Shown piece after piece: positions 1 through 27,680 of a stretch of DNA of 64,000 nucleotides. The notes below the pieces were generated by a model. It saw nothing but the letters and a program-made list of their open reading frames with translations, was not told the origin of the DNA and did no database searches. The stretch covers positions 1,054,001 to 1,118,000 of the forward strand of contig NZ_CP030051.1 in NCBI RefSeq assembly GCF_004114975.1. The letters run 5' to 3'. A program made the position numbers and the translations under genes. The number at the start of each line of letters is the position of its first letter. The first letter of the stretch is position 1. The DNA is from Bradyrhizobium guangdongense. Its GTDB lineage: Bacteria; Pseudomonadota; Alphaproteobacteria; Rhizobiales; Xanthobacteraceae.

Positions 1-525
1 GTGCGCTTCGACAACAACAAGTACTCGGTCGCAGCCAGCGCAGTCGGACGCCCCGTCGAGGTTCAAGCCTATGCCGATCGCATCGTGATCCGTCAGGATG
101 GACGCATCGTTGCCGAGCACCCGCGATCCTTTGGCCGCGGCGATACCGTCTACGACCCCTGGCATTATGTGCCGGTGCTCGCCCGCAAACCCGGCGCCTT
201 GCGTAATGGTGCTCCCTTCAAAGACTGGGTGCTGCCGGCCGCGATCGAGCGGATCCGGCGCAAGCTTGCCAGCACCGACGATGGCAATCGGCAGATGGTC
301 GACATCCTCAACGCGGTGCTGACTGACGGTCTGCCCGCGGTGGAAGCGGCCTGTGCCGAAGCGCTCAGTCACAGCGTCCATTCCGCCGATGTCGTGCTCA
401 ATATCCTGGCCCGTCAACGCGAACCCGCCCCACCGGCCAACATCATGACGCCGGCCGCACTGACGCTCCGTCATGCACCGATCGCCGATTGTGCTCGCTA
501 CGACAACCTCCGGAGGACCATCTGA
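1..525 (+). CDS. istA: IS21-family transposase IstA, C-terminal part (partial)
   Basis: This is the C-terminal 174 residues of the IS21-type DDE transposase IstA, running in from the left edge of the window. The segment has the usual post-catalytic part ([18 protein letters not shown], then a Tyr/Pro-rich stretch [17 protein letters not shown]) and ends in the helical tail. The DDE catalytic domain and the N-terminal HTH lie upstream of the window. The gene ends in TGATG, where its stop overlaps the istB start, the translational coupling normal for IS21. The GTG at base 1 is not a true start. The identification rests on the family-specific tail and on the istB neighbour. Confidence 0.85.
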
Positions 526-1388
526 TGGAACGAACCCAAATCTTCGACCTCATGGGCGAACTCAAGCTCTACGGCATGAAGGCTGCCTTCGACGAGATCA
601 TGGCGACTGCCGTCAAGCGCCAGCACGAACCTCAGCGCATTGTCGGCGACCTGCTCAACGCCGAGATCAACGAGAAGCAAGCCAGGTCGATCAAATACCA
701 GCTCACCATTGCCAAGCTGCCGCTCGCCAAGGACATCGCCGACTTCCAGTTCGACGGCACGCCGATCAATCAGACTCTCGTCAATGATGTCGCTGGCGGC
801 GGCTTCATCGCCCAACAACGCAACGTCGTGCTGGTTGGCGGCACTGGCACAGGCAAAACCCACCTGGCCATCGCCATCGCCAGAAGCTGCATCCGATCCG
901 GTGCCCGCGGCCGCTTCTTCAACGTAGTCGACCTCGTCAATCGCCTCGAGACCGAGACCCGCAACGGACGGCAAGGACGGCTCGCCGAGCATCTGACCCG
1001 GATGGACTTCATCGTGCTGGATGAACTCGGCTATTTGCCCTTCGCGCAGTCCGGTGGCCAGCTTCTCTTCCACCTCGTCAGCCGGCTCTATGAGCGCGCC
1101 TCCGTCATCGTGACCACCAATCTCGCCTTCGGCGAATGGCCGAGCGTGTTCGGCGACGCCAAAATGACCACCGCGCTGCTCGACCGATTGACCCATCACT
1201 GCGACATCGTCGAGACCGGCAACGATAGCTGGCGGTTCAAGAGTCGAGACGACGATCACGCCACCCGCGCTCGTCTCGCCTCCGCTATCCCGGCCAGCTC
1301 CGACGAGACGAGCGCTACCAGCAAAACCCGCCGCACGAAGGGGTCAAAATTGGACGCCGATGAGGGGTCAAATTTGCAGGCCGATTGA
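525..1388 (+). CDS. istB: IS21-family helper ATPase IstB
   Basis: IstB is the AAA+ ATPase that assists IstA in target choice and strand transfer. The 287-residue protein has a Walker A motif ([11 protein letters not shown], about residues 104-114), a Walker B ([12 protein letters not shown]) and a sensor-type segment (VIVTTNLAF), all intact. The start ATG at 525 overlaps the istA stop and is preceded by a ribosome site, CGGAGGA, at 511-517. An earlier in-frame ATG at 489 is less likely because it lies inside istA without such a site. The C-terminal 40 residues run into the terminal repeats of the element, which is common in IS21 members. Confidence 0.93.
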
Positions 1389-5379: not shown

Positions 5380-6636
5380 TCAGGCGGACAGCGCCTTGGC
5401 CGCGTCGAAGGATACCTTCGCGTGGTGCAGCTCGCGCGCGAGGTCGCGCTTCCAATCACCACAGAGGGAGATGTAGGCGATCCCATCAAAATCCGAGGGC
5501 TTCTCGACATTTCCCTTCAAGAGGGCGGCGACCTTGCTCGGTCCCAATTTGCCAATGAAGAAGCCAAGCTCGAAGACGACATTCTGACGTGCACGAGGTC
5601 GATGCGCACCGCTACCGGCGATCCCGCCCTCATCGTCGGGCGTCATCAAGACAACGGCGAATTCTGCGCCCTCTGACTCTTCCTGAAACTTCGTCAACAA
5701 GTGCCGGCCACCGTTCGGCCGCATGTGAAGAATGACCGGTTGAAGTCCAATCATTCCAAGGAAGAGCGCAACTTCGTTCTTCGTGGCATCGTCTCGCCCG
5801 TGCACAAGAAAGATCTTTGCGTTGGCTGTCGGCAATGTTGGCTTAGGTGTGACCGGCTGAGAGCTCGAGGGGACCATTTTGGCTATGTCCTGCGATGCGA
5901 ATTTTACCCCGAAGGCGCGATAGCGCTTGTCTTGGATATAGGTCTCGAAATCGCCCATGGTCCAATTTTGCGTCAGAGCTTCATTCCCCTCGGCCCACCA
6001 AAACTCCTTGGGGACGTTCCGCGGGCCTGAAGGTTTGTCGTCAATGATAAATTGCTCAGCGCGCGCGCGGATCATGTTCGCGTGGGCGCGCTGGCAGATG
6101 ACCATTTGCGCGGTAATTTTGCTTTCAAATGCCGTCGCCAACAAATGCAAGGCTTGCGCCGCGCTAATCCATTCTTCCTGCGCTTCCATTTTCTCAGCCT
6201 GGGTAAATCGCGATCCCCTTACAAGTCCAATCTCGACATTCCTCAACATGATATCGAGCCGCTGTTGAAAGACAGCCCGATATTGGTGCGTCAGCCGCTG
6301 GTGATCTTGCGGGAAACCGTTCGGTTGTACAACCCCGAGCACAGAATTATTGAGATTTTCGAGGTGTGGGCGCGCCCAACCGATAATCTCGGCCGGAGAC
6401 GTCTGCATGCGCTCAATAAAGTCGAGCAGCGTGCCGTTGGCCTGCTCCATCGCAGACTCATGAAGGTCATCCGCCGCCTTGATTGCAGCAACCAAAATCC
6501 CGTTGCTATGAATTGCAAACGCCTTTATGGCCTCGGCCTTGATGCGGTTCACTTCATCTGCAAGCTTGTGCCGGGTTTCGTGCATGAGCATCGAAAGAGC
6601 CGTATCGAGATCGTTCTTCTTAGGACGCTCAAACAA
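5380..6636 (-). CDS. TIR-like nucleotide-binding effector (PF10137-type)
   Basis: The C-terminal part (about residues 273-405) has the signature of PF10137, the TIR-like domain found in CBASS and TIR-STING effectors: AKIFLVHGRDD, PVILHMRPNGGR, FAVVLMTPDD, RARQNVVFELGFFIGKLG (putative catalytic Glu356) and KPSDFDGIAYI. Relatives cleave NAD+ when activated. The first 270 residues are helical and not recognised; they probably sense or oligomerise. No cyclase (CD-NTase) gene is adjacent, so its trigger is unknown. The start is probably TTG at 6636 (complement CAA 6634-6636) with GGAA upstream; ATG codons 16 and 18 residues in are alternatives. Confidence 0.8.
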   Translation of the reverse strand: MFERPKKNDLDTALSMLMHETRHKLADEVNRIKAEAIKAFAIHSNGILVAAIKAADDLHESAMEQANGTLLDFIERMQTSPAEIIGWARPHLENLNNSVLGVVQPNGFPQDHQRLTHQYRAVFQQRLDIMLRNVEIGLVRGSRFTQAEKMEAQEEWISAAQALHLLATAFESKITAQMVICQRAHANMIRARAEQFIIDDKPSGPRNVPKEFWWAEGNEALTQNWTMGDFETYIQDKRYRAFGVKFASQDIAKMVPSSSQPVTPKPTLPTANAKIFLVHGRDDATKNEVALFLGMIGLQPVILHMRPNGGRHLLTKFQEESEGAEFAVVLMTPDDEGGIAGSGAHRPRARQNVVFELGFFIGKLGPSKVAALLKGNVEKPSDFDGIAYISLCGDWKRDLARELHHAKVSFDAAKALSA

Positions 6637-7171: not shown

Positions 7172-8539
7172 TCACTTGGGGCCATCGACTTCCGGCGGAG
7201 CAATCGGCAATTGCAGCTTCAGCGCAGCCTCGGCATATTTGGCGGCGCTTATCTGGTAATATTTCTGATTCATTTTTGCCATTTCATAGAGTGCTTTCGC
7301 TATTCCTATTAAGTCCATCGGATCTTTCTTCGAAAACTCAAATATCTTGGCGCTGAGTTCGTCCCAGCTCACCTCATCCTTTAGCAGGCCGGACAGCGAA
7401 AATTCTGCATCGGTGGGTACGGCCATCGAAACGTCCATTGGTTTGGAGATTTTTCGAATACTCGCCTGTATTTCGATGCTGCGAAGCTCGTTCTTTATGC
7501 TCGTAACGATATCGACGATAGCGACAAGGTCCTGCTCCGACGCATAAACGTGCTTCAGCAGATCGACGTACAGCTGATCAATCAATTTTCGCCGCGCATA
7601 CCAGCAGGCATTGACCAAGTTATAGAGCATTAGCTCCTCGGGGTTCGCGGTATCGTGAATCCCGAAGATGGGGAGGTCGATAGGAGCTGCCGTGAAGTAG
7701 AATACCAAGCGCGAGGCATCGTTCACTTCCTCATAACGACGAAGGGTCAGGCGATAGAGCTCGTCGGACTGATGAGGTCGCATGAAGCAGCCTTGAGGCG
7801 CATCCTTTTGAATATGTGCTGTCCTTATCATTCTGGCGAGTTCCGGCTCGTAAAGGGACCGCCCGACCCAGTCCTTGGACAAGCCATGCCACCTCCAGCC
7901 GCCGGTCACCGCGTCCTTTCCAAAGAGTGTCTGCCAATTCTGGCTTCCCAGAAGCAAAGCCGGATCCGGGATCAGCTCGCTCTTCAACGCGCCCCAATTC
8001 TTGTCGGAATTTTCGAACTCGATTGAGAAGTTCGGAACGAGATCAAAATTTAGCGCCAAAACATCCGTTTGATGAAAGGCAGAGGAGATTCGCTGCGCAG
8101 CTTCGCGCAGGAATTTCAGATCTATCCCTGGATATATACGCCTGTCTACGTAGAGCTGCCTCAGAAATTCGAACAGGTTATCCTCAGATACCGGTACCGA
8201 TATGTATTCCGTAAGCGGTTTAGGAACGTCAACGCCGGGATCGTGAAGAACGACAATCGACCGTCTGTTGGCGTCTGTAATGGTTGCCTGAAATTGACCA
8301 GCTTCCAGAAGGCAATAGCCCCAATCTTCGTCCTCTCCCGTGTAGAGAAGAATGAAGACGTCAGCGCTCTGGATTGCTGTGGTTATTTCAGGAGTCAGCC
8401 GCCCGCCTTTTGGGAAGGTTTCTGCCAATATGATCTCGATCTTGCTGCCAGAATTGGCTGCGATGAATTGTCCAATCAGGGAGGCGGCACCGCCATCCTT
8501 TGGCATCTTGTGACTAATGAAAATCTTCAAATCGCTCAT
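7172..8539 (-). CDS. TIR-domain protein with long uncharacterised C-terminal region
   Basis: The 455-residue protein starts with a TIR domain (about residues 4-130): KIFISHKMPKDGG, a beta-D-type segment ADVFILLYTGED, and EDWGYCLLEAGQF, where Glu79 is in the position of the NADase catalytic Glu. The remaining 320 residues are mainly helical and show no domain I know. They include an aromatic-rich part (GWRWHGLSKDWVGRSLYEPEL) and a C-terminal helix set (YYQISAAKYAEAALKL). The layout of N-terminal TIR plus unknown sensor fits a single-protein NAD-depleting defence factor; this is inferred from the family. It is a monocistronic leftward gene. Confidence 0.8.
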   Translation of the reverse strand: MSDLKIFISHKMPKDGGAASLIGQFIAANSGSKIEIILAETFPKGGRLTPEITTAIQSADVFILLYTGEDEDWGYCLLEAGQFQATITDANRRSIVVLHDPGVDVPKPLTEYISVPVSEDNLFEFLRQLYVDRRIYPGIDLKFLREAAQRISSAFHQTDVLALNFDLVPNFSIEFENSDKNWGALKSELIPDPALLLGSQNWQTLFGKDAVTGGWRWHGLSKDWVGRSLYEPELARMIRTAHIQKDAPQGCFMRPHQSDELYRLTLRRYEEVNDASRLVFYFTAAPIDLPIFGIHDTANPEELMLYNLVNACWYARRKLIDQLYVDLLKHVYASEQDLVAIVDIVTSIKNELRSIEIQASIRKISKPMDVSMAVPTDAEFSLSGLLKDEVSWDELSAKIFEFSKKDPMDLIGIAKALYEMAKMNQKYYQISAAKYAEAALKLQLPIAPPEVDGPK

Positions 8540-9513: not shown

Positions 9514-10767
9514 ATGCGAATTTTCGTCAGTCACTGTGCAAAGCACGACCCTCGGTCAGCGGTTGTCGTGCAGCGCCTTGTGGATGACTTGAGCGATGGC
9601 GAAGTGCAGCTGGTCTGGGATCGCGATCTACTGGGGGTGGGGGACGACTGGAACGACAAGCTGTTAACCGAAATAGAGTCCTGCGACGGCGCGATCCTCC
9701 TCCTGAGTCTTGCAGCACTCAAGCGTCCGTACGTAGTGATGGAGTGCACAATTCTCGCTCAGCGCAAGCGCCACAGCGAGAAGTGGGGCGGAAATACGTT
9801 TGAGCTGCTATCGGTGCTTGTCGGCGGGCTCAAGCCCGAGGATCTGGCAGACCAGACAAAAAGCCACATGAAGGATCTGGGCCTCGGCAAGTATCAGGCT
9901 GGGGATGACGAGGATCTCGACGCGCTCATCGAGGCGCTGAGAGCGACGCTGGAGCGACTTAAGCTTGTCTATCGCCGAAGCGCGCCGCGCGATTTATTGC
10001 TGAGCGATATCGCTAGGCAGCTGACAAGCAGCAAGCTCGGCTCCGACGCCAAGTTGGCGAACCTCCTGAGGATCGAGCTGCCTGCATGGGTGCAAGCCGC
10101 ATCCGCCGAGGTTCGCGCATTGGCCGTCGCCGCCGCAATGCCCGATAAGAAATTGCGGACTGTCGGTCGCGCCCTCGCAGAGGCAAGAGATGACATTAGG
10201 CAAAAGGATGCTGTCGCCATCGTCGAACGGCTCGCACCGTTCGCCGTACCTAGCGACGCCGCCGCCCGCATTCCATGCGTGGCTCATGACCTGACGAGGC
10301 CGAAGGCATTCGAAATCAATGCCGAGCATCTTGACATAGGTCGATGGTATGCGCGGCTTGCTTATGGGAGCATGCTCGTCACAACCATGACTGAAGTCGC
10401 GAACGCCGACTCCGGCCTCGGCTTCATGCATCTCGTCGAGGAGATCGTCGACGCCGTGATGGAGAAGGTCGACGCCGAAACGCTTGAAGAGGCCCTGGAA
10501 GAACTGAAAGACATCGGCACGCCCTTTTTCGTCCTGATTCCTTGCACGCGGCCGTTGTCGGATGTCGTTTCGAAGGTACATGAGAGGTTTCCGACGATCA
10601 CGCTACTTTTCCTCTCCGGCTCCATGCCGTCGCGACCCCATCCGGTCGCAAACGTCAGCCTGCTCGAACCACTGCTGGAAATCGGTCATGAGCAGACGGT
10701 TCGCAGCAACTACGAAAAGACCATAGAAGCAGTGAGGAAAGCCCATGAAGCCCGCCTCCGCAAGTGA
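9514..10767 (+). CDS. TIR-domain protein, first gene of a TIR-MoxR-vWA-CHAT operon
   Basis: A 417-residue protein with an N-terminal TIR domain (about residues 1-145): MRIFVSHCAKHDP, VWDRDLL, a beta-D strand GAILLLS and RPYVVMECTILAQ with candidate catalytic Glu77. The rest is a helical region (DLLLSDIARQLTSS, then an Ala-rich helix pair) plus a C-terminal alpha/beta piece (TPFFVLIPCTRPLSDVV) that I cannot assign. GGGAG lies about ten bases before the ATG. Its 3' end overlaps the MoxR-like gene by 23 bases, so the two are co-translated. TIR domains of this type usually consume NAD+ or make a nucleotide signal; here the activity would be gated by the neighbouring ATPase and vWA-like proteins. 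Confidence 0.85.
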   Translation: MRIFVSHCAKHDPRSAVVVQRLVDDLSDGEVQLVWDRDLLGVGDDWNDKLLTEIESCDGAILLLSLAALKRPYVVMECTILAQRKRHSEKWGGNTFELLSVLVGGLKPEDLADQTKSHMKDLGLGKYQAGDDEDLDALIEALRATLERLKLVYRRSAPRDLLLSDIARQLTSSKLGSDAKLANLLRIELPAWVQAASAEVRALAVAAAMPDKKLRTVGRALAEARDDIRQKDAVAIVERLAPFAVPSDAAARIPCVAHDLTRPKAFEINAEHLDIGRWYARLAYGSMLVTTMTEVANADSGLGFMHLVEEIVDAVMEKVDAETLEEALEELKDIGTPFFVLIPCTRPLSDVVSKVHERFPTITLLFLSGSMPSRPHPVANVSLLEPLLEIGHEQTVRSNYEKTIEAVRKAHEARLRK

Positions 10768-11719
10768 ACGAACGAGCGCGTTGACGTACCGACCGATCTT
10801 TGATCCGGAGAAACCAGTTGAGGCCGAGTACGGATGCCTCGGCGCGATTTCTCCCTACGGACGGCCCAAGAGCGCAATCCCGTACGTATATCACTTGCCG
10901 GAAATCGCGCTTGCAGTGAACGTTGCGCTCGCGACGCAAAGACCGCTGTTGCTCAGTGGCCGTCCAGGCGCAGGTAAGAGCACGCTTGCTCGCCATGTCG
11001 CCTCGTGCCTGGCCTGGGAATACCAGGAGGAGACGATCACGTCGAGAACTCAGGCGAACGATCTGTTGTGGAAGTTCGATGCGCTTGAGAGGTTGAGCGA
11101 TGCCAGTACGTCCGGGATCGCAGTCCGCGAGGAAGCCTACTATGTGGAACCGGGCGTTCTCTGGTGGACATTCGACCCGGTGTCCGCCTGCAATGCGAGC
11201 CGTCGCAACGCCGGAAAGCAGCGAACTTCGGAACTGGAGAGTATTCGAGGCGTTGTGGTGCTCCTCGACGAAATCGACAAGGCGGAGCCCGATGTCCCGA
11301 ACGACCTCCTTGTCCCCATCGGCGGCGGCGAATTCCATCCGAAAGGACATGACCATCCGGTCCGTGCGCAGAAGAAGCGTCTTCTGTGCATCACGACGAA
11401 TGGTGAGAGAGAGTTGCCGCAGGCGTTCGTTCGCCGCTGCGTAACGCTTTCGCTCAAGCGGCCTTCCGATTCGCAGCTGCGCGACATAGCTGCGAAGCAT
11501 CACCCCGACCTGAAGCCGGAATCACAGCTGCTCGACCAGATTCTCTCGGCGTTCAACACGCTCGAAGTCGAAATGGCTCGCACAAACCGTCGTCCGCCGA
11601 GTACGGCCGAATTCCTCGATGCGGTGGACGCTTGCCGGGCGCTCGATCCGTCGGACGTCGTCGAGCTCGCGCAATTCACGATGCGAAAAATCGTCGAGGT
11701 TCAGGATCGGGACGAATGA
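10745..11719 (+). CDS. MoxR-like AAA+ ATPase of the TIR/CHAT operon
   Basis: The 324-residue protein has a Walker A motif (GRPGAGKST, residues 72-80), Walker B (VVLLDEIDKAEPDVPNDLL, about 171-189), a sensor-1 Asn (LLCITTNGE) and an arginine-finger region (FVRRC). This is a MoxR-type AAA+ ATPase, which in ternary bacterial conflict systems acts as a chaperone-like switch with a vWA partner and an effector. It overlaps the TIR gene at its start by 23 bases and its stop overlaps the ATG of the next gene (ATGA). The architecture is complete and nothing suggests decay. Confidence 0.88.
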   Translation: MKPASASERTSALTYRPIFDPEKPVEAEYGCLGAISPYGRPKSAIPYVYHLPEIALAVNVALATQRPLLLSGRPGAGKSTLARHVASCLAWEYQEETITSRTQANDLLWKFDALERLSDASTSGIAVREEAYYVEPGVLWWTFDPVSACNASRRNAGKQRTSELESIRGVVVLLDEIDKAEPDVPNDLLVPIGGGEFHPKGHDHPVRAQKKRLLCITTNGERELPQAFVRRCVTLSLKRPSDSQLRDIAAKHHPDLKPESQLLDQILSAFNTLEVEMARTNRRPPSTAEFLDAVDACRALDPSDVVELAQFTMRKIVEVQDRDE

Positions 11720-12693
11720 GCATCGATCGAACATCGCTGGGAGATATTGCGCGGATCAAGAAGACCTTGTCTCCGCAAGGCGCAGCCACCTGGAATGCGA
11801 TTCTCGACCTGCTCGGGCTGCCGTTGGAAATGCCGGCCTCTGAAGCCGGTCCGCAACCCGGGAAAGTCGAAGTCCCGAGCAAAGGGGAGGTCGTTCGCCC
11901 GCTCCCCGACACCGACAAGCCGCCGCTCGAGACGAAGCCGCAGACTGCTGCACCGCAGCCTGTCTTTGCTCCCACCGGGGCGATCTCCATCAAGCACCTC
12001 GGGTCATTTGTAAGGCGGCCGGAATGGAGCTCCGACGGAAGGAGGCTCGCTGAATACGACGAGGTCCGCCCTGCTCCGAGCGTGCCTACGCTGTTTTCGC
12101 CCAGACAGGAGCGGTCCCTGATCACCGCCATCGCCCTGGCCCTCGCCGAGACAGGCGAGCTCGATGAGGAGCGGGTAGCCGAGCAGGTCGCTCGGGGTGA
12201 GCCGCTCACAAGGATTCCGCGGCGCTTGCGGCCCACGTCGCATTTCGGTGTGCAGCTTCTCGTCGACCGGGGACCGCGACTTGAACCACTGCGTGATGAC
12301 CAGCGAACCCTGCGCAATGCATTGTTGCGTACAGTCGGTGTCCATCGAATTCAGATGTTGCGCTTTGCCAACTTCCCCGATCGTGTCGGTCCGGGCACGC
12401 CCCGTACATGGCGCCGATACGTGCCGCCCGCGTCCGGGACTGTCGTGCTCGTCATCACAGATCTCGGCCTTGGCCGGCTTGGTGCGATGGAGCGCACGCA
12501 CTCTTTCGATGATTGGACCGACTGGGCAGGCCGAGTGCGCTCCGCCGGGGCCCACCCTGTCGCTCTCGTTCCACACGGCCCGCGCCATTGGCCGAGGAGC
12601 CTGCGACGGCACCTCCGTCTGGTGCATTGGGATCGGACGACGTCTGTCGGCTCGGTTCGCGCAGCCACCGCATTCAAGGGCGCGCCCACTTGA
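11716..12693 (+). CDS. vWA-like/SAV_2336-like partner of the MoxR ATPase
   Basis: A 325-residue protein starting at ATG 11716 within ATGA. It begins with a helix (IARIKKTLSPQGAATWNAIL) and a Pro-rich linker (about residues 50-95). Then come a block resembling the SAV_2336 N-terminal region (LIDRRLRPT-like, FGVQLLVDRGPRLEPL) and a Rossmann-like segment typical of vWA folds (GTVVLVITDLGLG, then DWAGRVRSAGAHPVALVPHGP). The MIDAS Ser/Thr residues are not obvious (VDRG instead of DxSxS), so metal binding may be lost. MoxR plus vWA-like pairs are standard; assignment by context and weak motif, not strong similarity. Confidence 0.65.
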   Translation: MSIDRTSLGDIARIKKTLSPQGAATWNAILDLLGLPLEMPASEAGPQPGKVEVPSKGEVVRPLPDTDKPPLETKPQTAAPQPVFAPTGAISIKHLGSFVRRPEWSSDGRRLAEYDEVRPAPSVPTLFSPRQERSLITAIALALAETGELDEERVAEQVARGEPLTRIPRRLRPTSHFGVQLLVDRGPRLEPLRDDQRTLRNALLRTVGVHRIQMLRFANFPDRVGPGTPRTWRRYVPPASGTVVLVITDLGLGRLGAMERTHSFDDWTDWAGRVRSAGAHPVALVPHGPRHWPRSLRRHLRLVHWDRTTSVGSVRAATAFKGAPT

Positions 12694-15506
12694 ACGAGAT
12701 CGCAAAAGAGCTGGGCGTCCTCGGTATGTTGAACGTCGAAGCACCGGAGGTCGTTCGTCTCGCCGCGGCAGTTTCGATTGCGTCGCGCATCGAGCCGTTT
12801 CTCCTGCGTCGGGCGCGCCTTGAGCTGTGCAGGGGCATGGATGCAGGTGTCGAACTGGAGCTATGGCACAGCGAGCTTGTGCAGGCTCACAGTCCCCGGG
12901 CAATGACCCTGCATCCCAGGTTCGCCCATGAGCTCCAGATCGAGCTGCGCGGGACTGGAAAGATCGACGAGGCCTACGAACTACTCAAGGAGTGCCATAA
13001 AGGTCTTCCCGAGGCGATCCTCCTCGAGGAGGAGATAACGTGGCGAATTCTCCGTGGCGAGATCGCCTCCGAGCGCGTGAAGCAGCTGCTGCGCAGGGCA
13101 ACCGCGTCGCTCGTCGAGGGCGGTCAACCGGAGCTCGCGCATTGGGCTTCGCGATTCCTGACGCGGGCGCCCAAAGAAATCCAGAATCTACCAGAGGCGT
13201 GGGTCTTAAGCTTCGCGGCGAGCTCCCGCCTGGGAGGCGCCCGTGTCCTGCAGTCCGGCGAACCTCCCGCGGGGATCCAAAAGGACGAGCTGCACTGGGC
13301 AATCGCCAACGCCGGTCAAGACGGCACCTTGCACGTTGGCCTCCGGGATGACCGATTGGTATTGTCGCTCGTCGCCCCCAGCGACACCGCGAAGCCCGCG
13401 CATCCCGTTCCGATCCCGTTGACCGATCCGATCATCATCGAAGTCGACGATGGGCAGGCGCAGGGCCCCCAGCTTCACCAGCTTGATCACACCGGGAAAC
13501 AGATTCTCGAGCTTCCCCTTACCGGGCCGACACTGAAGCTGACGACGGTGTCGGGCAACGTGTACGAAGTCGCCGTTCCAGTCGTCGCGGCCGCCAGTGC
13601 TTCGGCGTCTCCGGACTCCCCATCTCCCGGTTCGGAGACCTTCGAAATCGATGAGCCGGCCAGCGTCGATAATCGAGATTTCGAGCTGGAGATCAGCGGC
13701 TCCAACTCCAACACAGTTGGCGACGGCGGGCGCGAATATTATGCAAGAGTCATCAGATCTCCGGCGGGCGGAACGCCGAGATGTCCGGTGAGATTTGCGT
13801 TTTCTGGACCGCAGGCATTGGAGAAGTTACGCAGCGAGCTCGAATATGCTGTTCTTGAGATCGGCGACAAAAATCGCTCTGGTCGGTTGCAACGCGGAGA
13901 AAGCGCGCTGAGAGATTTTGGTCGTGATATTTTCCGAAGTATTTTTATCGATCCGGCACCCATTCGGAACATCTACGCGAGAAGCAAAGGTCTTGCTGCC
14001 CTAAGAATAAGACTTCGAATTGAGTGTCGGGAGTTGGAATGGCTGCCTTGGGAGTACCTTTACGACGAGGAGGAGATGCCGGCTTTCGTGAGCCTTTCGC
14101 GACCAGTCGTTCGCTCTTTCGAGACTCAGGGCACCGTCGCACGAATGGGGGTCAAAGGTCCCTTACGCATTTTGGGCATGATAGCCGACCCAGCAACCAG
14201 CGAGTGGCCGAAGCTTGATGTTTCTAGGGAAAGAGATCGAGTTAACCAGGGCCTTGACAGATTGCAGCGCGAAGGACGCGTTGATTTCCAATGGCTTCCC
14301 GGAGGCACCGGGAAAGACCTTATGAAGAAACTGCTTGAGGGGGACTGGCACGTCTTTCATTTCATCGGACACGCAGGAGTCGAGGCACCTGTTTCCAGTG
14401 AAGACGGCACCCCCGCCAACTTCGACGAACAAAGCTTCATCGTTATGTCTGACGACGATGGTAAGCCCGTCAAGAAATTTGCATCTGATCTCGCGCTCAT
14501 GCTGCAGGGGGCTCGCAGAAGCCTCCGGCTTGTGGTTCTTAACCATCGCGAGAGTACCTGGACCAATGGTGGCTTAAGATTTGGCAACCCTGCGATCGGG
14601 TTAATACGGTCGGGCTGGTTGCCCGCTGTCGTAGCCACGCCATCTTGGATGAGCGACAACGCAGCCATTACAATGTCAGAGGGATTCTACGCGGCTCTTG
14701 CAAGCGGCCGACCTGTTGAAGAGGCCGTTACGCTTGCTCGTAAGTTCATACAAGAGAAATCGAGAGTAGAGTGGGGAATTCCGGTATTGTATATGGGCTC
14801 CGGTGACGGCAAGATTTTCGACATTGCCAGCTCGGTCCTCACGAAGCCGGCTGCAGGCGTAGCTCGCGATGACACGCTCTCGGGCGAAGAGCTAAGTCAA
14901 CGCCGTCAAGAGTTTCTGCTCGATGCATCAAAGGCACAGCAGTCCACGGACGAATTGGAAAGGCTGACCGCGCGCGGTCGAGAACTTCTGCTACATGTCG
15001 GGGATGATCAGGAGCTGGCCGCGCGCGTCGCCAGATTGTACTTCGATCTTGGCACTCTTCAACATCGGCAGAAGGACATAGCAAAAGCCGCGGCCAGCTT
15101 TGCCTATATGCTGCAATTCGACCCCACAAAGCCTGAGTATCGAGTCCGGCGCGCCAATTTCAACGTAACGGTCGGGCTTTACGAAAACGCACTCACTGAC
15201 ATCGCGGAGGCGATCAGACTCGAGCCCGATAATGCAGAGTTCTATTGGATAAAGGGGATTATTTGCATGACAGCTACGGGAGCGGATGACAGCCGCAGCT
15301 ACATCGAGGAAGCGATCAAGTCGTTTGACACGGCTATCTTGATTAAGCCTCTAGAACCAAAATATCTGGCATCGCGGGCTAATGCATATGCTCAGTTAAA
15401 GCGCTATTCCGAAGCCCTTAGCGATATCAACGCAGCGATCGCACTAGCTCCAGAAAATCCCGATCTCGTGACGCTGAAGCTGAAAATAACGAGTGAGATG
15501 AGTTGA
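12690..15506 (+). CDS. CHAT-domain (catalytic Cys missing) protein with TPR repeats, last gene of the operon
   Basis: The 938-residue protein probably starts at TTG 12690, overlapping the previous stop as TTGA, with AAGGG at 12676-12680; ATG 12726 is an alternative. The N-terminal 400 residues are helical then beta-rich and unassigned. A caspase-like CHAT domain follows (about residues 470-740): ELEWLPWEYLYD, then WHVFHFIGHAG with the catalytic His561. The position that carries the nucleophilic Cys in CHAT proteases (usually LNACES) reads LNHRES, so Cys is Arg at about residue 620 and the protease should be dead. The C-terminus has three TPR units (SFAYMLQFDPTKPEYR, AIRLEPDNAEFYWIKG, AIALAPENPDLVTLK). 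It may now be a scaffold or sensor for the TIR effector. Confidence 0.82.
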   Translation: MNEIAKELGVLGMLNVEAPEVVRLAAAVSIASRIEPFLLRRARLELCRGMDAGVELELWHSELVQAHSPRAMTLHPRFAHELQIELRGTGKIDEAYELLKECHKGLPEAILLEEEITWRILRGEIASERVKQLLRRATASLVEGGQPELAHWASRFLTRAPKEIQNLPEAWVLSFAASSRLGGARVLQSGEPPAGIQKDELHWAIANAGQDGTLHVGLRDDRLVLSLVAPSDTAKPAHPVPIPLTDPIIIEVDDGQAQGPQLHQLDHTGKQILELPLTGPTLKLTTVSGNVYEVAVPVVAAASASASPDSPSPGSETFEIDEPASVDNRDFELEISGSNSNTVGDGGREYYARVIRSPAGGTPRCPVRFAFSGPQALEKLRSELEYAVLEIGDKNRSGRLQRGESALRDFGRDIFRSIFIDPAPIRNIYARSKGLAALRIRLRIECRELEWLPWEYLYDEEEMPAFVSLSRPVVRSFETQGTVARMGVKGPLRILGMIADPATSEWPKLDVSRERDRVNQGLDRLQREGRVDFQWLPGGTGKDLMKKLLEGDWHVFHFIGHAGVEAPVSSEDGTPANFDEQSFIVMSDDDGKPVKKFASDLALMLQGARRSLRLVVLNHRESTWTNGGLRFGNPAIGLIRSGWLPAVVATPSWMSDNAAITMSEGFYAALASGRPVEEAVTLARKFIQEKSRVEWGIPVLYMGSGDGKIFDIASSVLTKPAAGVARDDTLSGEELSQRRQEFLLDASKAQQSTDELERLTARGRELLLHVGDDQELAARVARLYFDLGTLQHRQKDIAKAAASFAYMLQFDPTKPEYRVRRANFNVTVGLYENALTDIAEAIRLEPDNAEFYWIKGIICMTATGADDSRSYIEEAIKSFDTAILIKPLEPKYLASRANAYAQLKRYSEALSDINAAIALAPENPDLVTLKLKITSEMS

Positions 15507-15889: not shown

Positions 15890-17485
15890 CTATTTGAAGA
15901 TGCCTTCTGCCCGCAGACGCTCGAAGTCGGCTCGTCTCGCGATCTCGTAATCCAATTTCGATGCTTGAAAGAGGGATTCTGGCAACCGGGCATAAGCTTC
16001 GTTGAATGTCCTCCCTTGCTTCAAGTCTGACAGCAAGCGCCGAAAAGCTGCGACGGTATTTTCACCCCTTTTGCCATACGCCGAAATCAAGTCACACCCG
16101 CTCTCAAATAGTCTTGCTGCATGCTCGGGACACTGCCCGTCAGCATAGCACATGGCTAATGGCGTCATCAGTTGATCAAATGCGGCATCTATGGTGCAGA
16201 GTGGATACCCCTCTTTCTCCCGGGACCGCTCTATGATTACGTCAATTACGTCAAGCGCTTGAGAAATCAGCTCGGGATGAGCCGCCCTTGGGTGGGGCTC
16301 GCTCTTGTAAAACTCAAACGCCGCCTTACTCACCCGTTCGGCTTCTCTCGCGATCCACACACTGTTCGCTCCAGTCGGAGTTTGCTTGAGCAGCGCCTTG
16401 ATGCACCGAGAGGCGAGAGCAAGGCGCTCTCTCGGCGATAAAGAGTCCGAGTTCAAATCGCGACCGGTGCGCACGCGACACTGGATGGCTTCTGGTAGGG
16501 AGGACAAGCAGACCTCATCGAGCCGCCCATGGGCGAAAGTTGACGCGGTCGCGATTGCAAGCAACACCACAGATCGCGCGTGTCCTTCAAGCCTACCATA
16601 GTGCCCGCTGATCCAGCGAAATGCCATGGAGATTACACCAGCATCTCGCTCCGTTGATAGAAAAAATATCAAACGGTCCCTGGCTTGCGGATCTCCTAAT
16701 TCGGCTAGTCGCGCCATAGTGCCGATCGCATTTGCTCTGTTGTCGTTGTTTTTACTCATCGCTGGTTCGAAGCACGCCCTCAATAGCATTGAGCTTAGTC
16801 CAGGCACTGCTTCCAATTCAGACCGGTCCATGCGATCAACTGAGCATCTCATGCTCATCAAGGATTGACAGGGCTCATCGGAATCACGCGTACTAATACG
16901 CCAGGGCAACCCGAGGAGCAGATCTACGTTGCTGAGTTTCTTATTTCCACTCTTCATCACTTCAGCAATGTCGAAGTCAAAGAACTTGCGTGAGACCGCG
17001 GCTTTAACTTCGTCGGGTTCGAAGTCAAACCGGTTGCCTGTTTTGACAAACTCGGCCAACTCTGCAGGATTCTGAAGATCAAAAGCAACGCAGCTTGCCA
17101 AGTTGGCTGGGACGGTTACCTCCGGCTCCATTTTCACTACCAATACCCGTTTGTAACTCCACTCCGTTTCAGCGGCCAATCCGGTAGCAAACTCTGCCGT
17201 CATCCATTCCGACAGAGCAGCCTTAGTGCTCAGACATACAACGATGTAGCGCGCATGAAAAAGGGCATGGCCGATTCTCTCAAGAAGCTGTCCATCGCTT
17301 AGATCCTCATCGCCATTCTCATCCCACCAAAGTGAGAGCCCTAAACCATGCAGGAGTTCAGCTAGTCGATGAACTGCATCCGCGTCCGCGCGCCTGTAGC
17401 TCAAGATGGCATCATATTTGAACACTCTGGCGCCATACCCCGGCTTCCAGGGCGCCGCTCCGATAGATTCATCATCGTATGCCAT
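15890..17485 (-). CDS. TIR-domain protein with helical repeat-like C-terminal region
   Basis: A 531-residue protein. A short leader precedes the TIR domain (about residues 23-150): KYDAILSYRRADADAV, LSLWWDENGDEDLSDGQ, ARYIVVCLSTKAA and SEWMTAEFATGL with candidate catalytic Glu98. The C-terminal 380 residues are helical with HEAT/ARM-like character (NAIGTMARLAELGDPQARDR, RSVVLLAIATASTFAHG), suited to protein sensing. It lies 179 bases downstream of the large TIR-STAND-WD40 gene on the same strand and could be co-transcribed with it. No catalytic defect seen. Confidence 0.8.
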   Translation of the reverse strand: MAYDDESIGAAPWKPGYGARVFKYDAILSYRRADADAVHRLAELLHGLGLSLWWDENGDEDLSDGQLLERIGHALFHARYIVVCLSTKAALSEWMTAEFATGLAAETEWSYKRVLVVKMEPEVTVPANLASCVAFDLQNPAELAEFVKTGNRFDFEPDEVKAAVSRKFFDFDIAEVMKSGNKKLSNVDLLLGLPWRISTRDSDEPCQSLMSMRCSVDRMDRSELEAVPGLSSMLLRACFEPAMSKNNDNRANAIGTMARLAELGDPQARDRLIFFLSTERDAGVISMAFRWISGHYGRLEGHARSVVLLAIATASTFAHGRLDEVCLSSLPEAIQCRVRTGRDLNSDSLSPRERLALASRCIKALLKQTPTGANSVWIAREAERVSKAAFEFYKSEPHPRAAHPELISQALDVIDVIIERSREKEGYPLCTIDAAFDQLMTPLAMCYADGQCPEHAARLFESGCDLISAYGKRGENTVAAFRRLLSDLKQGRTFNEAYARLPESLFQASKLDYEIARRADFERLRAEGIFK

Positions 17486-17664: not shown

Positions 17665-20600
17665 CTATCGGCCCGGCGTGGTGCAAGGAGCAGCCGGCGT
17701 GCCGCCGAGATAGTATTCGACCTCGTCTTGCGTCAACGTCCGTCCTGCGGCCGCGCAAGCCACCTGGACTAGGTCATCCAGGCGCAGCCGCCAAAGGCGC
17801 ACCGTGCCGTCGTACGCCCCGGAAACGAGCCAGCGTCCCTCCGGGCTGAATGCGATGTGGGGCACCGAACCTTCATGTCCGCGCAGGGTAACCGGCGCAA
17901 CGCCCGGCTCGTCGGGACGCCATAATCGGATCGTCCGATCCTCCCCGGCGGTGGCGAGCCATCGGCTATCCTGGCTGAAGCCGACAGCCAAGATTCTTCC
18001 GGCATACCCCTTGAGATGCACTACCGGGGAAGTCGCTGGCGCGCGCAGGTCAAGCAAGGCCGCGCTGCCGTCCCAAGACGCGAAGGCCGCCCATCGATCG
18101 TCCGGGCTGAACACGGCGCGGAACACGCGGTCCTTGAAGTCGATCTCGCGGACCAGTTTCGGCGACGCCTCGGGCGCCAACTCCCACAACCGTCCCTTCG
18201 TATCTATGCTGGCGGTGACGGCCCAGCGCCCATCGCTGCTAAGCGACATCTGGTAGACGACGTCGTCATGCGGCAGCCGCACCGGGGTCGCGCAGGGGTT
18301 CTCGCTCGCCAGACTCCAGAGGTAGGCAGCCGTGTCATGAGCAGCGGTCGCCAAGAATTTGCCATCACCGCTGAACGCGAGCTCTCGAACCGAACTTCTC
18401 GGTCGGCAGTGGTGCCGTGGCGTCAGCGAGGGCGTGTCGGCGGAGACGTCCCACAGATCCAGACTCGACCGCTGACCGGCAAAGGTACCGCTGACGAGCC
18501 AGTGGCTGTCGGGGCTGAAACGCAAGGTGCGATCGTCGCTTGATCCCTCTTGAACCATCACCAGCGGGGGCCTCGCGAGGTCGCGCAAGCTCCAAACGCT
18601 GATGCGCCCCTGGTCCTGGCTTTTGGCGGCCATCCAGCGACCGTCGGGGCTGAACGCGATCGAGCGCGCGAACCCCGGCATTGCCAGCATGTGTGGTGGC
18701 GCACGCAGGTTTTGCGTCGACCACAGCACGAGCCGATCGTCACTATCGCTGGACGATGCGATCCATTGGCCGTCCGCACTCACGGCCATGCCCCTAACCG
18801 GGCCGACCGGCGCCCGCAGCACGAGTGGTTCCGGCCCCGGGTCAGGCAGGCTCCACAGGCGTGCCGATTCGCCTTCTCCCCAACTCAGCAAGTAGCCGGT
18901 GTCGACTCCAGGTGAGAAGCGGAGCGCTGCAATCGACAAGTCGTGCCCGCGCAGCGGCATTGCGCGCAGCCCGGGATGCACCAAGTCCCAGAGGTACAAG
19001 CTACCGTCGGCTGCCGCGCTGGCCAGCCAGTGTCCATGGCCGCCGAATCCGACGACCGTTACCGGCCCGCCATGGCCAGAGAGAATAATGGGATTACGTA
19101 GCTCGTCCGGGTCGCCCGCCAAACGCCACAGGCGCACGTCGGTCGAACCAAGGCTGCCAAGCGCGAGCCACCGGCCGTCGGCGCTAATGTCGAGCGTCGT
19201 GATCCAGCCGCCGCCGCTTGCGTAGGTCCCGACCACGCTCGCTGGAGGGGCGGGCTGGGTCAGATCCCACAACTCAGCGACATATCCGTACGCCGCCGCC
19301 AACCTGGTGTCGTCCGCTGAGAAGGCGATGGCCAGGAGCGATGGTTCAGCCAGCTTAGTCTCGGGGACGAGCAGTTTCGGTCCGCGCGCCGCGCCTTGCG
19401 CTGACAGGTCCCATAGCCGCACCGGTGCGACAGAGTTGTCCTTGCAAGCGCCAGTGCAGGTGGTGGCCAACCAGCGGCCCTTAGGGCTGAACATGACCGT
19501 GGTGACAGGCACTTCGTCCCGCCAAGCCGGATCACATGGCGTTTCCTCCGGCCCGTCGGCCAGCCAGCGCCAGAGGCACAGGTGACCCGATTCGGTGCCG
19601 AAGGCGACCCATTGCCCATCGGGGCTCGCGGCCAGCGCACGGATCGCGCCCATTGCCTTCACCGAGATAACGGGGCCGGCGACGGGCGAGGCGGCGTCGA
19701 TCTGCCACAATCGCAACGTGCCGTCGCTCCCGGCGCTGACCAGACGACGGCCGTCCCCGGCGAACACAAGGCCAGCAACGGGGCCGTGGTGGCCAGCAAG
19801 ATCGTGGGCCGCGGAGTGCGGACCCGACGCTGTCAGGTCGTGCAGGCGGACCGATCCATCGGCAGTGCCGATGGCCAGCCAACGCCGGTCTGGCGAGTAG
19901 GCCGCGACCGCCACATCCGTCGTGTGACCATCCAGGGGCATGCCTGTGGCACGTAGTTGCTGGCGTACCCCGTCGATCGCGCCGATCAGGCCGCGTCCGT
20001 CGCTCGGCTGCAACGTCGCCGCATGCACGGCGAGCAGCAGGCTGCGCTGGGGGGCAGACGAGGGGTCGCTGGTATGACGGGCGATAGACTGGACCTGCAC
20101 GACCCGAGACTCGTTGTCTTTGGCGGTCTTTTGCGCAGTCCTCGCCTCTTGCTCCGAATGAAGCGCAGCGGTCGCACTGGTTTGCGCGTGCTGTTCCGAT
20201 TCCCGTGCTTGCAAGAATAGCATTACTGCCCCGGCTGCGATGATGGCCAATACCAAGGCAGCTGCGATCGAACCCCAGGTGATGATTCGCCGCGTCCTTT
20301 CTTTGCGGAGGGTCTCGGCTTCGGCGCGCGCTGTGCTGGCCTGAATGAACGCGCGCTCCTGCGCACTCAGCTGGTTCGGATACTCGATCAACCACCTGCG
20401 CGCGCGACTGAGCTTCAGTCCAGTCAGGAGAGCCGTGGCCTTGTCCGGCTTCGCCGCCTGGTCCCAGTCGCGCAAATCCTGCTCAAGCTGCTGCTTGCCG
20501 ATCAGGAACGCGCGAGCGGAATCCAACCAGGATTTCAGTAGCGGCCATTTGCGCAATAGCGCCTCGTGCGCAACTTCGACCGCGCGCGCCTCGCCGTCCT

Positions 20601-22077
20601 GACGTACGATCAGGAGGCGCGCATTCGCGAGCCGCTCCAGCAACGGTTGAGCTTTGGTCGGCAACTCGTCCAGCCGTGCCGGACGGCGGGCATATTCACC
20701 CTGGTCATTGACGCGCACCATCGCCGGTACGAACGCCTCGCGCAGCGCCACCAGCTCGTCGTCCGCCGGCTCCGCTTCGGCCAGCACCGCGTCGGCAGCC
20801 TTTCGCACCGCGTTTTCCAGCGGCGTGAGCCCCGCCCTTTCGTCGCCGAGCGCATTGTAGCTGTCAAGACTGAGCACCTTGTTCGACGACCGGTCCCAGA
20901 GTTCGCGCAGCGCAAAGGCCAGAAGCGGAAGCGCGTCCTCCGTCGCTGCGTCTCGAGCGGCCTGCTGAACGAAGGTCTCTTCGACGTTGACGCCCGCCAC
21001 CTTCGCCGGCCCCTGGATGATCTGCGGGATGCGTGTCAACGGCATCGGTCCAAGCGAGAATTCCTCAAACCGTGCCGTCAGCTGCGCCGCCGACTGAAGG
21101 CGCCCCAGGTAGTCCGACCTGACGGCCGCGATCGCCATGAACGGCAGGCTCTCGGAGAGCGCCTGGCTGAGAATTTCGAGAAAACGCCGTGCCTCGTCCG
21201 GATCGGCGACACCGAACAATTCCTCCGCCTGGTCGATGGGGATCAGGATCTGCGCTTCGCTTGCGCCCCCTTTAACGCGCAGGTCGTTAGCGAAGTCAGC
21301 GAGCGAGCGCGCGGCGTCGGGACCCAAGAGATCGTCCTTCAGCTTGCGCCAGTCGGCGCCGGACGCCCCGGCCAACGCCACTGCCAGTTCGTCGACCGGA
21401 TGCAATCGCGGTCGCATCGGCGGTGTGACAATCCAATTGCGGCCGGCGCGTTTCAGCCGGGGAACAACGCCGGCCCGCAGCAGGGAGGATTTGCCGGATC
21501 CGGACGACCCGAGGAGCGCGATCAACTTGGCGCCGCCCTGAGCCCGGCGTGCGTCGAGCCGCTCGATCAGGCGGCGGATGTCGTCATCGCGGCCGAAATA
21601 GATCGCAGCATCTTCTTCTTGGAAAGCGAGCAGACCGGGAAACGGCGGGCGATTGGCGTCCCATTTGAAGCCGCCTTGGGCGTCAAGCGCGATCCGCACG
21701 AGCTCGCGCGAGAGCCGTTCGAGCCCGCCCTCGCGATCGCTGAGCAGATTGAGCGCTTGGATGTCGGGCGATATCTGAGCGTCACCAGTCGGTGTCTCAA
21801 TGACAAGGAAGATCGCCTTGCCGAGCGCGCGCGCCTGCGTGAACTCGGCGAAACACCATTTTGAGGCCAGCCAGTTCGGCGTCTGAATGATGATGACGGC
21901 CTGGGACTGCTCGACCTCCCGGTAGAGCGTCTTCTCCCAGTCGGCTCCGGGCGCAATGCCGGCCGTCTTGTCGAAGTCGAGAAACGTTGCCTCGAACCCT
22001 TGGCTCGCGAGCCAGGCTTTCATCCGCGCGGCCGACTCATCGTCGCGGCTCGAATGAGAGATAAATATGCGAGCCAT
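17665..22077 (-). CDS. TIR-STAND NTPase-WD40 repeat protein with a membrane segment
   Basis: An NLR-like protein of 1470 residues, the largest immune gene here. Order: TIR (1-130; MARIFISHSSRDDE, ASKWCFAEFTQAR with catalytic-type Glu78), a STAND NTPase of the nSTAND1/AAA_16 kind (about 145-560; Walker A GSSGSGKSS at 180-188, Walker B ILIPIDQAEELF at 267-278), a predicted membrane helix (588-612, IAAALVLAIIAAGAVML), a helical linker, and about 14 WD40 blades (680-1430) with repeated SPDGRWLA and DGTVRLW signatures. By analogy with STAND receptors, the propeller would sense a ligand, the NTPase oligomerise and the TIR cleave NAD+. The gene is intact and starts with ATG at 22077. The C-terminal tail after the last blade is Cys/Gly-containing. 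Confidence 0.93.
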   Translation of the reverse strand: MARIFISHSSRDDESAARMKAWLASQGFEATFLDFDKTAGIAPGADWEKTLYREVEQSQAVIIIQTPNWLASKWCFAEFTQARALGKAIFLVIETPTGDAQISPDIQALNLLSDREGGLERLSRELVRIALDAQGGFKWDANRPPFPGLLAFQEEDAAIYFGRDDDIRRLIERLDARRAQGGAKLIALLGSSGSGKSSLLRAGVVPRLKRAGRNWIVTPPMRPRLHPVDELAVALAGASGADWRKLKDDLLGPDAARSLADFANDLRVKGGASEAQILIPIDQAEELFGVADPDEARRFLEILSQALSESLPFMAIAAVRSDYLGRLQSAAQLTARFEEFSLGPMPLTRIPQIIQGPAKVAGVNVEETFVQQAARDAATEDALPLLAFALRELWDRSSNKVLSLDSYNALGDERAGLTPLENAVRKAADAVLAEAEPADDELVALREAFVPAMVRVNDQGEYARRPARLDELPTKAQPLLERLANARLLIVRQDGEARAVEVAHEALLRKWPLLKSWLDSARAFLIGKQQLEQDLRDWDQAAKPDKATALLTGLKLSRARRWLIEYPNQLSAQERAFIQASTARAEAETLRKERTRRIITWGSIAAALVLAIIAAGAVMLFLQARESEQHAQTSATAALHSEQEARTAQKTAKDNESRVVQVQSIARHTSDPSSAPQRSLLLAVHAATLQPSDGRGLIGAIDGVRQQLRATGMPLDGHTTDVAVAAYSPDRRWLAIGTADGSVRLHDLTASGPHSAAHDLAGHHGPVAGLVFAGDGRRLVSAGSDGTLRLWQIDAASPVAGPVISVKAMGAIRALAASPDGQWVAFGTESGHLCLWRWLADGPEETPCDPAWRDEVPVTTVMFSPKGRWLATTCTGACKDNSVAPVRLWDLSAQGAARGPKLLVPETKLAEPSLLAIAFSADDTRLAAAYGYVAELWDLTQPAPPASVVGTYASGGGWITTLDISADGRWLALGSLGSTDVRLWRLAGDPDELRNPIILSGHGGPVTVVGFGGHGHWLASAAADGSLYLWDLVHPGLRAMPLRGHDLSIAALRFSPGVDTGYLLSWGEGESARLWSLPDPGPEPLVLRAPVGPVRGMAVSADGQWIASSSDSDDRLVLWSTQNLRAPPHMLAMPGFARSIAFSPDGRWMAAKSQDQGRISVWSLRDLARPPLVMVQEGSSDDRTLRFSPDSHWLVSGTFAGQRSSLDLWDVSADTPSLTPRHHCRPRSSVRELAFSGDGKFLATAAHDTAAYLWSLASENPCATPVRLPHDDVVYQMSLSSDGRWAVTASIDTKGRLWELAPEASPKLVREIDFKDRVFRAVFSPDDRWAAFASWDGSAALLDLRAPATSPVVHLKGYAGRILAVGFSQDSRWLATAGEDRTIRLWRPDEPGVAPVTLRGHEGSVPHIAFSPEGRWLVSGAYDGTVRLWRLRLDDLVQVACAAAGRTLTQDEVEYYLGGTPAAPCTTPGR

Positions 22078-27646: not shown

Positions 27647-27680
27647 CGAGATCGAAACGCGACAGCAATCGAGGTGACAC

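What the first reader, a model, noticed from the sequence alone, without database searches (positions are those of the whole stretch)
9514..15506. Four-gene TIR-MoxR-vWA-CHAT/TPR operon: candidate undescribed immune system
Four rightward genes are translationally coupled: a 23-base overlap, an ATGA overlap and a TTGA overlap. They encode a TIR protein, a MoxR AAA+ ATPase, a vWA-like partner and a CHAT-TPR protein. MoxR/vWA/effector triads are known from bacterial conflict systems. Two effector-type domains in one operon, one NADase-like and one protease-like with a degenerate site, is a combination I do not recognise as a named system.
Basis: partly seen in the sequence, partly recalled or inferred. 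Interest (0 to 1): 0.85.

Follow-up and report, generated by a model that had tools for sequence, protein, structure and literature searches.

The report
TIR-MoxR-vWA conflict operon, TERNS3 type
This four-gene bacterial operon is a real, conserved, immune-like system whose general design was already predicted in print in 2021; what is new here is a captured, fast-changing protease-like end piece that has lost its catalytic cysteine.

Summary
In detail: TIR (9514-10767), MoxR AAA+ (10745-11719), vWA-like (11716-12693) and CHAT-TPR (12690-15506) overlap by 23, 4 and 4 bases. In 19 of 19 relatives found through gene 3, MoxR, vWA and the gene-4 N-terminus lie together; TIR is present in 18 (the other contig is cut). 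"Undescribed" does not hold: the layout (5' TIR fused to an alpha+beta third component, MoxR, separate vWA, separate vWA-L-effector gene) is that of the TERNS3 class of MoxR-vWA ternary conflict systems predicted in eLife 2021 (PMC8195603). The helical start of gene 4 is vWA-L: unsplit vWA-vWA-L proteins exist. Identity of the third-component domain with TERNS3 could not be tested. New details: what follows vWA-L varies among at least ten architectures. In this clade a Bradyrhizobium-type CHAT-TPR appears captured once and has diverged fast (66-71% identity against 86-93% for vWA-L). The window's copy alone among 58 aligned proteins lacks the CHAT cysteine, while the TIR glutamate is invariant. 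Antiviral function is inferred, not shown.

The parts
9514..10767 (+). Gene 1: TIR domain (residues 1-150) fused to a ~265-aa alpha+beta third-component domain (residues 153-417)
9742..9744 (+). Glu77, the putative TIR catalytic glutamate
   Evidence: invariant in 18 of 18 and 27 of 27 aligned proteins, window included; catalytic role recalled from TIR families, not tested
10745..10767 (+). 23-base overlap of genes 1 and 2
10745..11719 (+). Gene 2: MoxR-type AAA+ ATPase, Walker A GRPGAGKS (by eye)
   Evidence: AAA_5 51.2 bits; tblastn to annotated MoxR family ATPases
11716..12693 (+). Gene 3: vWA-like protein, stand-alone
   Evidence: hhalign to CoxE-type vWA of MoxR-vWA operons
12265..12267 (+). 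Asp184, first MIDAS-type aspartate (LVDRG)
   Evidence: invariant in 31 of 31
12460..12462 (+). Asp249, second vWA aspartate (TDLG)
   Evidence: nearly invariant; by eye 30 of 31, Asn in L003
12690..13589 (+). Gene 4 N-terminal constant region: vWA-L linker (helical part about residues 1-180) and a beta part (about 198-297)
   Evidence: found in all 25 gene-4 proteins aligned; its first ~120 positions are fused directly to vWA in L060 (two proteins) and L061; model pLDDT 84.7
14028..14768 (+). CHAT domain (Pfam PF12770) in the variable position of gene 4
   Evidence: 37.1 bits, residues 447-693
14547..14549 (+). Arg620 at the place of the CHAT cysteine (LNHRES instead of LNxCES)
   Evidence: 57 of 58 aligned proteins have Cys here; only the window has Arg
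15012..15503 (+). C-terminal TPR repeats (approximate limits)
   Evidence: TPR_9, TPR_2, TPR_16 and others

Best explanation
A TERNS3-type MoxR-vWA ternary conflict system. Gene 1 is the class-defining third component: a TIR NADase-type domain on an alpha+beta module. MoxR (gene 2) and vWA (gene 3) form an ATP-driven chaperone switch that holds a complex in check and remodels it. Gene 4 carries the vWA-L linker, by which it docks on the vWA, plus an exchangeable module, here CHAT-TPR. On sensing an invader the switch remodels the complex and the TIR acts on NAD+, as signal or as NAD+ depletion, with abortive-type death the likely outcome. In this copy the CHAT cannot be a normal cysteine protease, so the TIR is the likely enzymatic output and CHAT-TPR a binding, sensing or decaying part. 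Shown here: gene order, homologies, conservation, variable modules, loss of Cys. Inferred: complex formation, switch action, NAD+ chemistry, defence.
For: Layout equals the published TERNS3 description. Co-location in 19 of 19 relatives for MoxR, vWA and the gene-4 N-terminus, and 18 of 19 for TIR. vWA assignment. Gene 3 + gene-4 N-terminus match the vWA component of VMAP systems (SAV_2336 family, with VMAP-C genes close by in Streptomyces): joined profile P 3.4e-7, prob 93, score 65.5 against a best of 22.9 in 100 column shuffles and 15.9 reversed. Unsplit vWA-vWA-L-FGE proteins directly behind MoxR in two other genomes of the same class, P 6.3e-37 against the joined profile. Variable modules after vWA-L. 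Invariant TIR Glu.
Against: No TERNS3 sequence or model was available, so identity of the third-component domain is not shown. The unsplit proteins cover only about the first 120 of 293 vWA-L positions, match SAV_2336 weakly when taken alone (prob 5.1, P 0.0077), and a fourth one (L062, frame cut at the contig end) gave no match to the gene-4 region. The host is Bradyrhizobium-like, not multicellular, whereas the class is reported mainly from multicellular groups. No functional data.
Confidence: 0.85

Rival explanations
1. A distinct, so far unnamed class of MoxR-vWA system whose third component only resembles TERNS3 in position, fold class and TIR fusion.
For: The third-component domain has no Pfam match in 18 proteins, none to VMAP-C or to five iSTAND-like or EAD1 proteins, and could not be compared with TERNS3.
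Against: Each architectural feature given for TERNS3 in the section read is met.
Confidence: 0.1
2. An iSTAND or iSTAND2 ternary system with a divergent inactive STAND module in gene 1.
Against: No PF19995 match in 18 of 18 at E<=1; hhalign P 0.3-0.7; iSTAND2 is described with EAD, bDLD3, trypsin or cyclase partners, not TIR.
Confidence: 0.04
3. A housekeeping MoxR-vWA maturation chaperone with accessory genes.
For: MoxR-vWA pairs often serve enzyme maturation (section 8 of PMC7159879).
Against: No match to gene 3 in 59 of 59 other related genomes, 35 of them same-genus; TIR in 18 of 19; swapped CHAT, NACHT, NB-ARC and LRR modules; further TIR genes beside the operon.
Confidence: 0.01

Closest known systems
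TERNS3 MoxR-vWA ternary conflict systems (eLife 2021, PMC8195603; section 6 and passages read)
   Same: 5' gene with TIR fused to an alpha+beta third component, then MoxR, a separate vWA, and a separate vWA-L-effector gene; variable effectors
   Different: CHAT is not among the effectors named for TERNS3 in that section (it says the classes overlap with those of VMAP and iSTAND systems); the paper's sequences could not be compared; host here is Bradyrhizobium-like
VMAP ternary systems (eLife 2020, PMC7159879; outline, passages, sections 8, 21, 22 read) with SAV_2336-type vWA component
   Same: MoxR, vWA, vWA-L and C-terminal effector; gene 3 + gene-4 N-terminus align collinearly to SAV_2336_NTERM
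   Different: third component lacks VMAP-C; vWA and vWA-L are split
iSTAND / iSTAND2 ternary systems
   Same: MoxR-vWA core; split vWA-L gene in iSTAND2 and a minority of iSTAND
   Different: no iSTAND match in gene 1
Stand-alone Bradyrhizobium CHAT-TPR proteins (about 605 aa)
   Same: two measured ones are 63.5% and 66.5% identical to gene 4's CHAT part; one lies elsewhere in the same genome (G000:C1:6300381-6302195)
   Different: no vWA-L; CHAT cysteine intact

Membership tests
TERNS3 ternary system | MoxR AAA+ gene | tested here: met
   AAA_5; 19 of 19 relatives
TERNS3 ternary system | separate gene for the vWA domain next to MoxR | tested here: met
   aspartates conserved
TERNS3 ternary system | adjacent gene with vWA-L fused to C-terminal variable effectors | tested here: met
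TERNS3 ternary system | 5' gene, third component with a novel alpha+beta domain | tested here: inconclusive
   position and alpha+beta model agree; no TERNS3 sequence available for comparison
TERNS3 ternary system | direct TIR fusion (commonest partner) | tested here: met
   TIR_2 in 18 of 18 gene-1 proteins scanned
TERNS3 ternary system | role against invaders | not testable with these tools
   prediction in print only; needs phage assays
VMAP ternary system | VMAP-C domain in the third component | tested here: not met
   0 of 18 by Pfam at E<=1; hhalign to 7 VMAP-C regions P 0.27
iSTAND / iSTAND2 ternary system | inactive STAND domain in the third component | tested here: inconclusive
   0 of 18 for PF19995, hhalign none, but PF19995 also missed two EAD1 proteins in the same operon position
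any PADLOC-DB 2.0.0 system | matching component models | tested here: not met
   only cross-matches of parts, best E 9.6e-9 RtcR for MoxR

The most novel reading that the evidence does not exclude
In this class the polarity is the reverse of the published TERNS3 model: the TIR in the constant 5' gene is the fixed effector, and the C-terminal module of gene 4 is the recogniser. The vWA-L junction is a swap point at which ready-made immune modules, such as a chromosomal CHAT-TPR, are captured and then diversify fast, even past loss of catalysis. (PMC10907252 proposed such a reversed polarity for DGR-linked VMAP systems; passages seen.)
Probability: 0.35. Interest if true: 0.65.

Novelty: new member of a known kind. 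Interest (0 to 1): 0.4.

Why it matters
It gives a compact four-gene member, outside the usual multicellular hosts, of a conflict class that I found only as an in-silico prediction. It holds a natural experiment: the TIR active site is fixed while the captured CHAT has lost its cysteine in one member only. That makes the open question of which end senses and which end kills testable with point mutants.

Full report
Observation. Pfam gives TIR_2 for gene 1, AAA_5 for gene 2, nothing for gene 3, and CHAT with TPRs for gene 4. No NCBIfam model reached its cut-off among the rows shown, and PADLOC gave only cross-matches of parts. The window lies in a genome of 8.44 Mb in two contigs. It is Bradyrhizobium-like by inference: its stand-alone CHAT-TPR protein is 94% identical to P0028, a protein named from Bradyrhizobium sp. 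BR13661.

Distribution. A search with gene 3 matched the own genome only among 60 related genomes, 35 of them other members of the genus; a profile search matched 3 of 385 genomes of the class, the own one included. The protein search gave 14 proteins, the window's own included. Two plasmid records, one viral contig and 16 genome loci hold relatives. In these 19 loci MoxR, vWA and the N-terminal part of gene 4 are all present; TIR is present in 18, and the nineteenth (L019) begins inside MoxR. In L020 the vWA match is spread over two ORFs. The loci are from Streptomyces (11 of 19), Asanoa, Corallococcus, Desulfosarcina, two acidobacterial MAGs, a planctomycete MAG, an unclassified bacterium and the viral contig. 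In 17 the order is TIR-MoxR-vWA-gene 4 or, in L019, its visible part; in L009 and L017 gene 4 is divergent, upstream of TIR. In 15 of the 17 collinear loci a start codon overlapping the vWA stop by 4 bases is available. Loci were found through gene 3 alone, so the other genes are independent evidence.

What gene 3 is. By hhalign its 31-member profile matches the vWA proteins of three cyanobacterial MoxR-vWA plasmid operons (prob 94.4, P 8.5e-8; with an Acinetobacter vWA added prob 95.8, P 7.6e-9), and those three hit VWA_CoxE. Asp184 is invariant and Asp249 nearly so. Against this, direct Pfam scans gave only VWA_CoxE at best E 0.0099 in 3 of 31, and a PDB profile search gave no vWA.

What the N-terminus of gene 4 is. 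A region of about 290 residues is shared by all 25 gene-4 proteins aligned (the window's region alone found it in 19 of 19 loci). Gene 3 and this region, joined, match the N-terminal part of SAV_2336-type proteins, which lie close to VMAP-C genes in Streptomyces: prob 93, P 3.4e-7, score 65.5; the reversed profile scored 15.9 and the best of 100 column shuffles 22.9. Separately the two matches are weaker (P 1.2e-4 and 2.1e-3). In two other genomes of the same class three proteins of 1150, 1155 and 1194 residues directly behind MoxR hold vWA, then about the first 120 of the region's 293 profile positions, then an FGE-sulfatase (FGS-type) domain; they match the joined profile with P 6.3e-37. A fourth, cut at a contig end (L062), has vWA and a start of FGE but no match to the region. 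The unsplit proteins alone match SAV_2336 only weakly (P 0.0077). So the helical start of gene 4 is the vWA-L linker of the literature; the beta part (about residues 198-297) is common to the split form. The model (pLDDT 84.7) shows both parts.

What follows vWA-L varies: CHAT (L002, L006, L013, L015, L018 and the window's group), TIR-CHAT (L007, contig cut), NB-ARC-TPR (L003, L010), TPR (L008), TIR-WD40 (L005), TIR-NACHT/AAA-TPR (L012), AAA_16 (L014), LRR (L019, contig cut), nSTAND1 (P0076), nSTAND1-TIR (P0078), NACHT-vWA-L-Schlafen helicase (L009, L017), and no Pfam match at E<=0.001 in L004, L016 and P0077. L011 and L020 are too short after vWA-L and were not scanned.

Known class. PMC8195603 (eLife 2021; section 6 and search passages read) describes ternary systems in which a 5' gene codes for a novel alpha+beta third component, TERNS3, most commonly fused to TIR, followed by MoxR, a separate vWA gene and a separate vWA-L-effector gene. 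The window's operon fits each point. The section gives no TERNS3 accession and the source data were not open to me, so domain identity is untested. In the library held, TERNS3 as a whole word occurs in this paper alone. I found no experimental test of this class (listings; passages of PMC10907252, and PMC10910872; of PMC7159879 the outline, passages and sections 8, 21, 22).

The captured module. Gene 4's CHAT part is 63.5% and 66.5% identical to two stand-alone proteins of about 605 residues, of a kind named from Bradyrhizobium many times. Among 41 related genomes only the own one and one more (G014) gave a near full-length match to P0028. Third-position GC falls from 0.71-0.77 along vWA-L to 0.45-0.63 after it. 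In a tree of 57 CHAT-TPR proteins (P0074 left out) the three vWA-L-fused ones group together (92/84; 91% of bootstrap trees) among stand-alone ones, with long branches; the tool warns that long branches may join falsely. Between these three proteins vWA-L is 86-93% identical but CHAT-TPR 66-71%. The CHAT cysteine is present in 57 of 58 aligned proteins and absent only in the window's.

Mechanism. The published model makes the C-terminal module the effector and the third component the sensor and signal source. PMC10907252 argues the reverse for DGR-linked VMAP systems. Here the constant TIR keeps its glutamate, the swapped modules are largely receptor-like (NB-ARC, NACHT, nSTAND, LRR, WD40, TPR), and one member has lost the CHAT cysteine. 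This leans to TIR as output and module as recogniser. But CHAT, TIR and helicase modules in the same place fit effectors equally, and the lost cysteine may be mere decay.

Verdict. A real, conserved system and a new member of a published predicted class; moderate interest because of the module capture, fast divergence and the testable question of polarity.

Noticed in passing
window 5380-6636 (-), 7172-8539 (-), 15890-17485 (-), 17665-22077 (-): More TIR-type genes beside the operon: CAP12/PCTIR-type TIR (114.6 bits), a TIR_2 match below its cut-off (21.8 bits), a TIR_2 (51.2 bits), and a 1470-aa protein that reads as TIR, STAND-like NTPase and WD40 (by eye only). The region looks like a conflict-gene island.
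   Followed up: partly
window 26351-28853 (+): TPR-S (PF20308) protein followed by a patatin-like phospholipase, a pairing I recall from conflict systems.
   Followed up: no
window 489-1388 (+): IS21-type IstB ATPase gene at the left edge.
   Followed up: no
L060 877-6761 and 13708-19877; L061 4707-11400: Unsplit relatives: vWA-vWA-L-FGE protein behind MoxR, with a trypsin-like (27.7 bits, cut-off 27.6) or calcineurin-phosphoesterase protein upstream of MoxR in place of TIR.
   Followed up: partly
L009 449-5275 and L017 2395-7278: In two Streptomyces gene 4 is divergent and has vWA-L in the middle, between NACHT and a Schlafen group 3 helicase.
   Followed up: partly
L005 134-997; L020 7416-8117 and 9563-10587: The TIR gene's ORF ends early in Desulfosarcina cetonica (287 aa, then a gap before MoxR) and is short in Streptomyces sp. 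DHE7-1, where the vWA match is also spread over two ORFs; possibly broken or misassembled.
   Followed up: no
L003 5396-7465: One of the 18 gene-1 ORFs scanned has a DpdA match (E 1.2e-47), by eye the annotated TIR protein of this Streptomyces plasmid, whose long N-terminus precedes the TIR; a merged neighbour gene or a true fusion.
   Followed up: no
L007 6542-8698: In a Holophagales MAG the ORF of the TIR protein has a long N-terminal extension that reads like a caspase-like peptidase (by eye).
   Followed up: no
L004 1-11385: One relative (77% in gene 3) lies on a contig held in IMG/VR; whether it is a phage was not checked.
   Followed up: no
L002 5753-6640: In a Streptomyces plasmid a DUF4231 gene overlaps the annotated TIR gene start by 4 bases, a possible extra component.
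   Followed up: no
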